DNA from: Verrucomicrobiia bacterium | GTDB lineage: Bacteria > Verrucomicrobiota > Verrucomicrobiia > Palsa-1439 | Reading direction: 5' to 3' | DNA: 36,136 bases | NCBI GenBank assembly: GCA_022072455.1 | Contig: JAJVHY010000034.1 | Location: 1-36,136, forward strand | Shown: one piece after another, positions 32,581 through 36,136 of the stretch | Position numbering within the stretch: position 1 is the first letter of the stretch | Layout of the letters: each line of letters starts with the position of its first letter | The notes under the pieces: generated by a model | What the model was told of the DNA's origin: nothing | Databases searched by the model: none | What the model saw: the letters and a program-made list of their open reading frames with translations, nothing else | Translations under genes and position numbers: made by a program

Positions 32581-33462
32581 GTGCCCGCCCCTGTCCAACG
32601 CGATTTCCTTGACCCGGCCGCCCTCGCCCGGCTCGCCCGACTCGAACTCTGTGCCCGGGGCCCGATGGAAGGCAGCGTTTCCGGCCGCCACCAAAGCCCG
32701 CACCGCGGCGCCAGTGTCGAATTCGCCGAATACCGGAAATACGTCGCCGGCGATGATCCCCGGCACCTCGACTGGCGCGTCGTCGCCCGCTCCGACCGGT
32801 TCTACCTCAAAGAATTTGAAGCCGACACCAACCTCCGCTGCCACCTCGTCCTCGACTGCAGCGGCTCGATGGCGTTCGGCAACAAACTCGGCTTCGCCCG
32901 CCAACTCGCCGGCCCCCTCGCCTACCTCGCAATGCTCCAAGGCGACGCCGTCGGCCTGACCTGTTGCCGCGAAAATGTCACCCTCGACATCCCGGCCCGC
33001 CGCAATCCCGCCCATCTCCGGCATCTCTTCGACGCCCTCGGCCAACAGCAACCCGCCGGCCAGACCGGCCTCGTCAAAGCGCTCCACACACTTGCCGACA
33101 AAGTCCGCCGCCGCGCGCTCATCATCGTTTTCTCCGACCTTTTCCACGATCCCGAAGAACTCCTGCACTGTTTCCGGCATCTCCACTACCGCAAACACGA
33201 CCTCGCCATTTTCCATCTCCTCGACCGCGCCGAAATCAACTTCGACTTTGACCGCCCCATTCGGTTCGTGGACTTGGAAAACGCCAACAGCCTCGTCGCC
33301 GAGCCCAACGTCATCCAGCAACGCTACCGGCAAGCCCTCGACGCTTACCTCCACCGTCTCCGCACCGGCTGCTACGAATTCAAGGTGGACTACCGGCAAG
33401 CCGTCACCGACCAAGACTATGAGAAAGTCTTGGCGGATTTCCTCCTGGCAAGAATGCGATGA
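32581..33462 (+). CDS. DUF58 (von Willebrand A-like) protein
   Basis: This 293-residue soluble protein has the DUF58 signature: G-RHQSPHRGASVEFAEYR, then GDDPRHLDWRVVAR, followed by a vWA-type segment with the metal-site-like DCSGSM. No membrane segment is present. It is the usual partner of MoxR ATPases. The start is GTG 32581, one base after the MoxR stop, and its stop overlaps the next start by 4 bp, so the three genes form one operon. Confidence 0.9.
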   Translation: MPAPVQRDFLDPAALARLARLELCARGPMEGSVSGRHQSPHRGASVEFAEYRKYVAGDDPRHLDWRVVARSDRFYLKEFEADTNLRCHLVLDCSGSMAFGNKLGFARQLAGPLAYLAMLQGDAVGLTCCRENVTLDIPARRNPAHLRHLFDALGQQQPAGQTGLVKALHTLADKVRRRALIIVFSDLFHDPEELLHCFRHLHYRKHDLAIFHLLDRAEINFDFDRPIRFVDLENANSLVAEPNVIQQRYRQALDAYLHRLRTGCYEFKVDYRQAVTDQDYEKVLADFLLARMR

Positions 33463-34415
33463 AGCCGCTGATCCTTTCGTGTCTTGTTGTGGCTGCGACG
33501 TCAATTGCCGCCACGACCAACGAAATCGCCACTGCCATTCGCGACCTTGGCGCCACCGACCACAAAGTCCGCGAAGCTGCCACCCGATTCCTCGCCACCG
33601 CCGGCAAGTCGGCTGTGCCCGCGCTCGAAAAAGCCGCCCAAAGTTCTGACCCCGAAATCCGGCTCCGGGCAGCCGCGCTCTTGCCGGCTGCCCGCCTTGG
33701 CTTGCCGGCCGACTTCCCGGCCGAGTTGCGTCAGGCATTGACGGAATACGCCCAGTCCACCGTCAGCCAAAAATCGGCCACCGTCACCCGGCTGGCCGAG
33801 CTCGGCCGGCCGGCCCGGACATTCGTGATTGAACTGGCCCAATCCGAGCCGGATCTCGAAACGCGCCTCCTGATTTTTGGACCACTTCTTGAACCGGTCG
33901 GCGCAGAGTTGGAGCGTCGCCTGCAACAGGAAAAACTTGATAACGACGCCGTCGCGCGGATTTCCGAGGGCCTTGAATTCACCCAAGCCATTATTCCGGA
34001 GTTAAGCGTCGAGCTTGTCCCGCGCTTCATCCAACGTTTCGATGCAGTCGGCCACAAAAAAGCCGCGGACGAGCTCTTCGACCGCACCTACCGGCAACTC
34101 GAGCAACTCTGTCGCGCCGCGCCCCAAGATGCCGAGCGCCACAACAACCTCGCCTGGCTCTGCGCCACCGCCCGCCGCCGTCTCGATGACGGCCTCAAAC
34201 ACATCCAGAAAGCGTTGACAGAAACGCCCGACTTCGCCCCCTACCTCGACACCCAAGCCGAACTGTATTTCCAAAAAGGCGACCAAAAACGCGCCCTCGA
34301 ACTCATTGAGAAAGCCATCGAGCGCGACCCCACCATGGATTACCTCCGCCACCAACGCGACCGCATCAAAAAAGGCGACCCGTCTGTTCCACCTCCCGAG
34401 CCGGCTGGTCAATGA
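33459..34415 (+). CDS. Exported HEAT/TPR repeat protein
   Basis: This 318-residue protein has a short signal peptide (MKPLILSCLVVAATSIAA). HEAT-type helical pairs (about 25-85) are followed by an all-helical middle. TPR-like repeats (about 215-300) include AERHNNLAWLCATA, FAPYLDTQAELYFQKGD and ALELIEKAIERDP. It probably serves as a periplasmic scaffold for the MoxR-DUF58 system. TPR proteins are also found in Bat-type operons. The usual vWA membrane proteins (BatA/BatB) are absent, since the cluster stops here and RHS remnants follow. Confidence 0.78.
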   Translation: MKPLILSCLVVAATSIAATTNEIATAIRDLGATDHKVREAATRFLATAGKSAVPALEKAAQSSDPEIRLRAAALLPAARLGLPADFPAELRQALTEYAQSTVSQKSATVTRLAELGRPARTFVIELAQSEPDLETRLLIFGPLLEPVGAELERRLQQEKLDNDAVARISEGLEFTQAIIPELSVELVPRFIQRFDAVGHKKAADELFDRTYRQLEQLCRAAPQDAERHNNLAWLCATARRRLDDGLKHIQKALTETPDFAPYLDTQAELYFQKGDQKRALELIEKAIERDPTMDYLRHQRDRIKKGDPSVPPPEPAGQ

Positions 34416-34540: not shown

Positions 34541-34927
34541 TCAACCCGATGGATCAAGTCTGGAAAGAGGACTGTTTTGGACATACACAGAAAGGATCGC
34601 ACCGTCCGCAAACCCCAGCGGATCTTCGCTCGTAAATCGCCCAACATACGGATCCATCACGCGCCAGCGGTAGTAGTAAAGCCCACCAGAATCACCGATG
34701 CTCTCGCGCGGTGTCGGCGTACCGGTTGGGGAATAGCAAACCGCTCCCGCGCTCTCACTGCGAATCTTTCCACTATCGGCCAACTGCACCCGGTTGCCGA
34801 CCGGGTCGTAGGTGAACTCTTGCGTCCGACTGTCGGGGTACGTGACTGCCACCAGCCAGTTGTTGCTGTTGTAACTATAACTATTCACGCCTTCGAGCGT
34901 CGTGATGTTGGTTCGGTTGCGGTTCAT
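34541..34927 (-). pseudogene. Displaced RHS C-terminal core fragment
   Basis: About 128 residues of RHS/YD-repeat core are visible: SYNSNNWLVAVTYPDSRTQ, EFTYDPVGNRVQ, then the conserved LYYYRWRVMDPYVGRFTSED and PLG. It ends NSPLSRLDPSG. The part between the repeats and the core is shortened compared with the RHS end at 35486. No RHS N-terminal part is attached; sequence upstream of about 34940 is unrelated and begins with GAGTTGACCCC (34943-34953). It fits an orphan RHS tip, as found downstream of active rhs genes. ATG 34927 is only a nominal start. Confidence 0.6.
34609..34711 (-). repeat. RHS core repeat, copy 1
   Basis: This stretch is closely similar to 35872-35974, encoding RESIGDSxGLYYYRWRVMDP and GRFTSEDPLGF in both. 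The two copies are direct repeats 1263 bp apart. They could support homologous exchange of RHS tips. Confidence 0.75.
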
Positions 34928-35082
34928 TTCGTCAAGAGTGCGGAGTTGACCCCCTCGACGGACGAGCGGTGTTACCGAGAAGCAACGGATGGGCTGTGAA
35001 AGCCAATGCGAGGGAACTTTTTGTCTTGATCGGAACCTTTTATGGGTGACCCCCTCGACCCCAATGACAGGACCTTGATGAT
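34928..35082. other. Spacer with RAYT-type motifs between RHS fragment and membrane gene
   Basis: No gene is seen. GAGTTGACCCC (34943-34953) and the related TGACCCCCTCGACCCC (35047-35062) lie here, each followed by CTCGAC. The motif matches the RAYT inverted repeat core at the left end of the window. Confidence 0.5.
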
Positions 35083-35472
35083 TCACGGATAACGTCTGAG
35101 GATAACGCCAACGCCCAAGCCCACGATTCCTCCGACCGAAACAAGTGGAAGTCCTCCCGTTGCTTGAGTAGTGACCAGTTGAATCGAGAATCCGGATGCC
35201 GCCCCGAGAAGACCCGAAAATATCACCGTTGCAACTGATCCACACCGGCGATCAAGTTTCAGTCCGAACCAAATCTCCATTAACCCAGCATAAAGTAGTG
35301 ATGGCACAATTCCGAAAGCGTATGCATATGCGATCAACAGTGGGAATCCTACCAACATTTCTGGTAGGCTGTTTGAGGGGCGGCACACAAGCAGCATCAC
35401 GCAGGCGGCTAAGGGACACGGAAGGCCTATCTCGACGCATAAGCGAACACATCGATTTGGGGAGATGTCCAT
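35083..35472 (-). CDS. Small membrane protein behind the RHS tip (candidate immunity protein)
   Basis: This 129-residue protein has about three to four hydrophobic segments (around 18-32, 42-65, 82-100 and 105-125). The family is not recognised. ATG 35472 is chosen because it lies 13 bp after the RHS stop; an open frame continues upstream into the RHS tip but would be overlapping. A small gene immediately behind a variable RHS tip is the classical place for the matching immunity gene. A membrane-located immunity protein would suit a tip acting at the membrane. This role is inferred from position only. Confidence 0.5.
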   Translation of the reverse strand: MDISPNRCVRLCVEIGLPCPLAACVMLLVCRPSNSLPEMLVGFPLLIAYAYAFGIVPSLLYAGLMEIWFGLKLDRRCGSVATVIFSGLLGAASGFSIQLVTTQATGGLPLVSVGGIVGLGVGVILRRYP

Positions 35473-35485
35473 CACAAGACTGACT

Positions 35486-36136
35486 TCAAGGCCACATACC
35501 ACCGTCAGGTGGCGGGGGGAGCGAGGGATCTTCGCAAATACTAAGACACGCGAGCAATAAAAGCCACGGCCCTTGCGACATACCTCCCGCAGCAGCATAA
35601 CACTTTTCGTGAGCTTGTTTCATGTCAGTTCCCTTGTCGAATTCGCATGACAAACAGCCACGCACTTTCTGCGACCATCCGCTATTCCCTGCACACTTAC
35701 AAAAACACTTCATACTTGCAGAAAAGTAAACCTTGTCTCCGTACTTATCACACTCTTTGCTATCATCCTTCAAAGGTGGCGCTGAGGAACAATCGCAACT
35801 ACTAAGACCTAAAGCATCGATGAATGCGAATGGGTTGTTTCGCGTGTAGTAGAACACGTTTGCCCCATCCACAAATCCCAGCGGATCCTCACTCGTAAAC
35901 CTCCCCACACTCGGATCCATCACGCGCCAGCGGTAGTAGTAAAGCCCTGCTGAATCACCGATGCTTTCGCGCGCGGTGTACGTGTAGCGATTCGGGAACA
36001 ACAATCCACTGCCCGCTTCACCCCGAATCTTGCCGAACGCTTCGTAGGTGTAACTCTTGGCAACGGCTTGCAGATCGTCTGTCATCGCCCACACGCTGCC
36101 AAGCGCGTCGGTGTGGTAGACATGGCGGCCATCACT
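35486..36136 (-). CDS. RHS-repeat protein C-terminal end with Cys-rich tip (5' end beyond window)
   Basis: The frame is open to the window edge (codons HVYHTDALGSVWAMTDD), so this is the last 216 residues of a larger RHS protein. After the YD-repeat SYTYEAFGKIRGEAGSG comes the conserved core LYYYRWRVMDPSVGRFTSED, PLGFVDGANVFYY and DALGL. The tip of about 105 residues has 11 cysteines, including CFCKC and CLSC, and a hydrophobic segment WLLLLACLSI near the end. RHS proteins deliver variable toxic tips or act as surface shells. The activity of this tip is unknown. Confidence 0.8.
   Translation of the reverse strand, partial: SDGRHVYHTDALGSVWAMTDDLQAVAKSYTYEAFGKIRGEAGSGLLFPNRYTYTARESIGDSAGLYYYRWRVMDPSVGRFTSEDPLGFVDGANVFYYTRNNPFAFIDALGLSSCDCSSAPPLKDDSKECDKYGDKVYFSASMKCFCKCAGNSGWSQKVRGCLSCEFDKGTDMKQAHEKCYAAAGGMSQGPWLLLLACLSICEDPSLPPPPDGGMWP
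35872..35974 (-). repeat. RHS core repeat, copy 2
   Basis: This is the partner of 34609-34711. It lies within the larger RHS gene. After this stretch the two fragments diverge completely, which marks the core/tip junction. Confidence 0.75.

What the first reader, a model, noticed from the sequence alone, without database searches (positions are those of the whole stretch)
34541..36136. RHS Cys-rich tip, candidate membrane immunity gene and an orphan RHS end
A conserved RHS core is followed by a tip with 11 cysteines in about 105 residues, then after 13 bp a small membrane protein gene, then a displaced RHS core with a different ending. This is the layout of tip exchange in polymorphic toxin loci. 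The tip matches no toxin fold I know and includes a hydrophobic segment.
Basis: partly seen in the sequence, partly recalled or inferred. Interest (0 to 1): 0.65.

Follow-up and report, generated by a model that had tools for sequence, protein, structure and literature searches.

The report
Cysteine-rich RHS tip with membrane partner
The end of this contig carries the interchangeable tip of a bacterial RHS protein, a compact cysteine-rich domain of unknown fold that, in every relative whose downstream DNA could be read, is followed directly by a small multi-pass membrane protein; it looks like an undescribed toxin and immunity pair used between bacteria.

Summary
At 35486-36136 (-) an RHS core (TIGR03696, 62 bits), cut by the contig edge, ends in a 105-residue tip with 11 cysteines. 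After 13 bp comes a 129-residue protein with four predicted membrane spans (35083-35472). A decayed RHS core copy without a tip lies at 34541-34959.

The tip is an undescribed domain family, absent from Pfam, NCBIfam and PDB sequences. I found 11 relatives in Verrucomicrobiota, Planctomycetota, Desulfobacterota and Zixibacteria at 29-86% identity; ten cysteines are conserved. In all ten relatives with readable downstream DNA the next gene encodes a protein with 3-5 predicted spans, against 10 of 95 other RHS tips (Fisher p = 6e-9). The closest relative shares tip (86%) and membrane protein (47%) behind a different RHS stub. AlphaFold2 gives an all-helical domain (pLDDT 79) with no PDB match.

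Other contigs of the genome hold an array of RHS cores with five further, unrelated, cysteine-rich tips.

Best reading: an exchangeable, disulfide-stabilised RHS toxin tip acting at the cell envelope, with its inner-membrane immunity protein. Pairing is well supported by comparison; toxicity and envelope target are inferred.

The parts
35804..36136 (-). RHS repeat-associated core, 3' part of an RHS gene, open at the contig edge (its 5' part lies on another contig)
   Evidence: TIGR03696 62.4 bits; the last 127 bases are an exact overlap shared with the starts of contigs C11 and C8
35489..35803 (-). Tip T5: 105-residue cysteine-rich domain (11 Cys, 10 of them conserved in relatives), candidate toxin
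   Evidence: translation; 11 relatives; AlphaFold2 model pLDDT 79.4
35473..35485 (-). 13-bp spacer between the tip's stop codon and the ATG of the membrane gene
   Evidence: sequence
35083..35472 (-). 129-residue protein with four predicted membrane spans, candidate immunity protein; relative with 47% identity behind the same tip in L129
   Evidence: no Pfam or NCBIfam family over cut-off
35047..35059 (-). 13-bp copy of the short repeat GTCGAGGGGGTCA after the membrane gene, also found at unit boundaries
   Evidence: self-comparison
34936..34959 (-). Unit-boundary sequence GTCGAGGGGGTCAACTCCGCACTC, the 5' junction shared by the array units on C8 and C11
   Evidence: 0-1 mismatches at this site, three sites on C8 and one on C11
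34541..34959 (-). Decayed orphan RHS core copy: 5' 189 bp, internal deletion, 3' core, stops at the core end with no tip
   Evidence: TIGR03696 48.4 bits, pieces against C8 units
33459..34415 (+). Context: TPR protein at the end of a MoxR-DUF58 operon that converges on the RHS unit (not part of the system)

Best explanation
This is one cassette of an RHS polymorphic toxin locus: a conserved RHS core, then an exchangeable toxin tip, then the gene of its cognate immunity protein. The tip is a small all-helical domain held by about five disulfide bonds. RHS carriers of this kind appear to leave the cell by the Sec route, so the tip would fold oxidised outside the cytoplasm and act at the envelope of a neighbouring bacterium, most likely at the inner membrane from its outer face. 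The four-span membrane protein would sit in the producer's inner membrane and block the tip there, as membrane immunity proteins of pore-forming colicins do. Repeated cores and short boundary repeats allow cassettes to be swapped by recombination. Shown: the anatomy, the tip as a conserved family, its constant partnership with a multi-span protein, exchange of tip plus partner between cores, purifying selection. Inferred: toxicity, immunity, disulfides, export of this particular protein, the membrane as target.
For: RHS core followed by the tip. Relatives of the tip found with T5 alone as query (phmmer, Z=100,000: 1e-58 to 4e-11 for ten of eleven). Ten of ten relatives have a 3-5-span protein as next gene, against 10 of 95 other RHS tips, p = 6e-9. 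Tip plus membrane gene conserved as a pair in L129 behind a signal-peptide mini-RHS. Ten conserved Cys, an even number. The full-length RHS on C11 and the mini-RHS proteins in L129 and L099 carry apparent signal peptides (read by eye). Array of six unrelated Cys-rich tips in the genome. AlphaFold2 all-helical fold. Membrane immunity is typical of toxins that act in the inner membrane (established knowledge of colicins; for CDI ionophores see PMC11630599).
Against: No toxicity or rescue data. The tip has no conserved membrane-spanning segment, so it may not form a pore by itself; its invariant Arg49 and nearly invariant His66 and Trp44 would also suit an enzyme or a receptor binder. The membrane partners of distant relatives are too diverged to align convincingly. 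The window's RHS unit is incomplete, so expression and export of this copy are not shown. Cysteines could bind metal instead.
Confidence: 0.68

Rival explanations
1. Toxin and immunity as above, but the tip is a secreted enzyme (for example acting on lipid or peptidoglycan precursors) whose active site includes His66 and Arg49, and the membrane protein protects the substrate or its flippase.
For: Arg49 invariant in 12 of 12, His66 in 11 of 12, Trp44 in 11 of 12; the AHxxCY motif faintly recalls phospholipase A2 (from memory, a lead only).
Against: The residue after His66 is variable, unlike the HD pair of phospholipase A2; no fold match.
Confidence: 0.25
2. The tip is not a toxin but a secreted binding or adhesion domain, and the membrane protein is its anchor or export partner.
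For: Some RHS/YD proteins act in adhesion (general knowledge); no toxicity data.
Against: The same cores carry many unrelated tips with different downstream genes, the polymorphic toxin pattern; membrane partners vary in size and family (86-333 aa), unlike a dedicated export component.
Confidence: 0.12
3. The window copy is a silent orphan cassette or a decaying remnant with no function of its own, kept only as a recombination donor. This can be true together with the best explanation of the family.
For: Array units start at one internal junction without a clear ribosome site, and the neighbouring unit is decayed; no full-length gene with this core type is in the assembly.
Against: Tip and membrane frames are intact with pN well below pS against L129, although that selection may have acted in other genomes; the missing 5' part may lie on an unbinned contig.
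Confidence: 0.3

Closest known systems
RHS polymorphic toxins with orphan tip-immunity modules (e.g. Rhs of Enterobacteria, WapA; Zhang et al. 2012, PMC3482391)
   Same: Conserved core ending near a DPxG-like motif, variable tip, small gene directly downstream, extra core copies with other tips.
   Different: The tip family is in none of the family libraries searched; all six tips of this genome are short and Cys-rich; some relatives are mini-RHS proteins made of a signal peptide, a core stub and the tip.
CDI ionophore toxins and their CdiI proteins (PMC11630599)
   Same: Helical C-terminal tip thought to act at the inner membrane, and an immunity partner that diverges faster than the tip.
   Different: Those tips are five-helix bundles predicted to span the membrane, with entry domains, carried by CdiA; this tip has ten conserved Cys and no conserved span.
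Pore-forming colicins with 3-4-span immunity proteins (established knowledge)
   Same: Polytopic inner-membrane immunity protein next to a helical toxin.
   Different: Colicin pore domains are larger, ten-helix, without such Cys content and with a hydrophobic hairpin.
Tox-WTIP pore-forming RHS tip (Zhang et al. 2012, PMC3482391)
   Same: RHS-associated tip proposed to act in membranes.
   Different: Tox-WTIP is defined by two membrane-spanning helices and a Wx[ST]IP motif, both absent here.

Membership tests
RHS polymorphic toxin system | RHS repeat-associated core directly before the variable tip | tested here: met
   TIGR03696 62.4 bits ending at residue 111, tip from 112
RHS polymorphic toxin system | Different tips on near-identical cores | tested here: met
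   82-83% aa cores on C8 and C30 with mutually unrelated tips
RHS polymorphic toxin system | Candidate immunity gene immediately downstream, linked to the tip type | tested here: met
   10 of 10 relatives against 10 of 95 controls
RHS polymorphic toxin system | Full-length carrier with export signal | tested here: inconclusive
   Window gene cut at the contig edge; full-length C11 RHS of another core type has an apparent signal peptide
RHS polymorphic toxin system | Toxicity of the tip and specific rescue by the downstream protein | not testable with these tools
   needs a bench test
Known toxin domain families (Pfam, NCBIfam) | Profile match over the curated cut-off | tested here: not met
   none for 12 tip members; none for the tip alone in PDB sequences or PHROGs
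CDI ionophore or pore-forming colicin | Membrane-spanning helices in the toxin domain | tested here: not met
   best 19-residue hydropathy 0.2-1.3 in 12 members, below 1.6; single-scale test
CDI ionophore or pore-forming colicin | Polytopic membrane immunity partner (colicins) | tested here: met
   four predicted spans in the window protein, 3-5 in relatives
Known solved fold | Structural match to a solved chain | tested here: inconclusive
   Foldseek no match at E <= 0.001, VIA best Z 2.1; model pLDDT 79

The most novel reading that the evidence does not exclude
The locus is a repertoire of disulfide-rich, bacteriocin-like toxins: a lineage of Sec-exported RHS proteins, down to mini-RHS proteins of signal peptide, core stub and tip, that delivers several unrelated oxidised Cys-rich domains acting at the inner membrane, most with their own small partner gene. 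The tip described here would found a new toxin fold with a new class of membrane immunity protein.
Probability: 0.35. Interest if true: 0.7.

Novelty: new member of a known kind. Interest (0 to 1): 0.52.

Why it matters
Polymorphic toxins have supplied many new enzyme and ionophore activities. This tip family has a clear signature, a constant partner and no family entry or fold match in the libraries searched, so it is a ready test case for disulfide-stabilised, envelope-acting effectors in Verrucomicrobiota and Planctomycetota, whose contact weapons are little studied. The mini-RHS form raises a simple question: whether the RHS cage is needed at all.

Tried and rejected
Single-sequence searches with the tip in 387 phylum genomes gave only weak hits near E 0.002-0.008; the four loci read out showed no RHS tip of this kind. 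Plasmids, phages and viral contigs gave nothing. A synthetic three-row alignment (A1), two rows of which I made up, served only as a degenerate motif and found nothing. A designed motif CxCxCxGx7[hydrophobic]RGCxxC, guided partly by my recollection of such tips, was scanned over genome contigs: 28 hits, of which about eighteen were chance matches by inspection and were dropped; the kept ones were checked with T5 alone. L130 is the weakest (E 0.019 alone) and is kept because of its motif, RHS core and membrane gene. Three A2 profile hits in the phylum (two with stops inside, E 7e-5 to 8e-4) were not counted. Phospholipase A2 was considered for the AHxxCY motif and not adopted. Pfam hits of the membrane protein (DUF5413, Competence, and DUF456 in L129) are below cut-off and taken as hydrophobicity matches. 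The AlphaFold2 model of the membrane protein is poor (pLDDT 57) and was not used beyond its helical content. Foldseek and VIA lists hold no convincing fold.

Full report
What is there. The window is the whole of contig C30 (36,136 bases) of a 4.8 Mb, 36-contig genome. Its right end lies inside an RHS gene on the minus strand. Residues 31-111 of the open frame 35486-36136 match the RHS core model TIGR03696 (62 bits). The remaining 105 residues hold 11 cysteines. Thirteen bases after the stop codon an ATG opens a 129-residue frame with four predicted membrane spans; by eye its Arg and Lys lie at both ends and in the middle loop, which fits both ends in the cytoplasm. Further down, 34541-34959 is another RHS core copy (48 bits) made of 189 bp of the unit's 5' end, a deletion, and the 3' core; it stops at the core end, so it is a decayed copy without a tip.

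The locus is larger than the window. The last 127 bases of the window are identical to the starts of contigs C11 and C8, an assembly branch. I read the three contigs apart and did not join them. C11 carries a full-length RHS (1686-codon frame; a likely true start at an internal signal peptide MKKIQRLMMAGATLIALTLG) with a Cys-rich tip, then a T2SSG-like gene (PF08334, 1.5e-15), then a unit of the window's core type running off the contig. C8 begins with four core copies (82-83% aa identical to the window's) spaced 1.3-3.1 kb apart, each with another tip and most with a small gene after it. Homology between units runs from GGGGTCAACTCCGCACTC to the core end and stops there. No tip of this genome resembles another tip in the survey or in the genome. 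All six have a Cys fraction of 0.09-0.18, against a median of 0.02 in 104 other tips of the phylum, with 2 of 104 as high (p = 3e-5; the comparison set is weighted towards genomes with large arrays, and tips of one genome are not fully independent). RHS cores are common in the phylum (256 of 387 genomes), so the array as such is ordinary there.

The tip is a family. A motif scan of 85,000 species genomes, with chance hits removed by reading each frame, and a profile search of 212 genomes of the phylum of L109 (Planctomycetota) gave eleven relatives: two Limisphaerales, a MAG labelled Akkermansia muciniphila, Desulfatitalea, a Zixibacteria MAG and six Planctomycetota. With T5 alone as query ten score 1e-58 to 4e-11 and the eleventh 0.019. 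A conserved RHS core lies upstream in ten of the eleven; in L127 what reads like an IS5-type transposase gene lies between core and tip, and in L133 no core was found within 1.5 kb. Ten cysteines, Gly40, Trp44, Arg49 and His66 are conserved in nearly all. The family is rare: no convincing other case in 387 Verrucomicrobiota, one new in 212 Planctomycetota. It is absent from Pfam and NCBIfam, PDB sequences, PHROGs and PADLOC.

The partner. In all ten relatives with readable downstream DNA the next gene starts -37 to +85 nt from the tip's stop and encodes 3-5 predicted spans. The eleventh is cut by its contig end. The same script on 95 other RHS tips finds such a gene in 10 (Fisher p = 6e-9); the controls come from Verrucomicrobiota only, which is a limit. 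Partners differ: 86 to 333 residues, some with a zinc ribbon. The window's partner has one clear relative, in L129, at 47% identity behind a tip at 86%. There the carrier is a mini-RHS, a signal peptide joined to a core stub, so tip and partner move together between carriers. Synonymous sites are near saturation in that pair (pS 0.90 and 0.78) while pN is 0.11 for the tip and 0.35 for the partner: both are real genes under constraint, and the partner varies more, as reported for CDI immunity proteins (PMC11630599).

Structure. AlphaFold2 on the tip alignment gives an all-helical domain, pLDDT 79, pTM 0.71. Foldseek finds nothing at E <= 0.001 in the PDB and the VIA second look tops out at Z 2.1. 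This does not prove a new fold.

How it most likely works. Exported RHS carriers plus an even set of conserved cysteines point to a disulfide-bonded tip that works outside the cytoplasm; a polytopic membrane partner points to the inner membrane as the place of action. I put toxin plus immunity at about 0.7 and the envelope target at about 0.5. Enzyme and ionophore remain open. Toxicity is untested.

Verdict. An undescribed toxin-immunity family in a known kind of system, in a locus whose tips are all Cys-rich.

Noticed in passing
L129:4243-9451: In the MAG labelled Akkermansia muciniphila two mini-RHS cassettes sit between an intact lysS and a duplicated lysS 3' fragment (by eye), which suggests an insertion or tandem duplication at lysS.
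   Followed up: partly
L020:742-1161 (C11, minus strand): The gene directly after the Cys-rich tip of the full-length RHS on C11 is T2SSG-like (PF08334, 1.5e-15) with one membrane span, an unusual candidate partner for an RHS tip.
   Followed up: partly
L127:3595-3852 (reverse-complement coordinates) and upstream: In a Planctomycetia genome an apparent IS5-type transposase gene separates the RHS core from this tip while tip and membrane gene remain downstream.
   Followed up: partly
L088, L099, L105: The gene after the tip's membrane partner is the same NmrA-like frame (TGAFGYSGRYIARRLL) in two Limisphaerales and one Phycisphaerae contig.
   Followed up: no
L130, L134, L135, L127: Several membrane partners from Planctomycetota carry a CxxCGY...CPECG zinc ribbon at one end.
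   Followed up: no
L021:1211-2539: A TPR protein of 442 codons lies inside the C8 array between two RHS units, and its frame ends in the unit-boundary repeat.
   Followed up: no
G117:C1:483746-594885 (L064-L067): Another genome of the phylum has dozens of RHS core candidates (74 in the first look), many in one region of about 110 kb, with varied tips, several of them Cys-rich and hydrophobic.
   Followed up: partly
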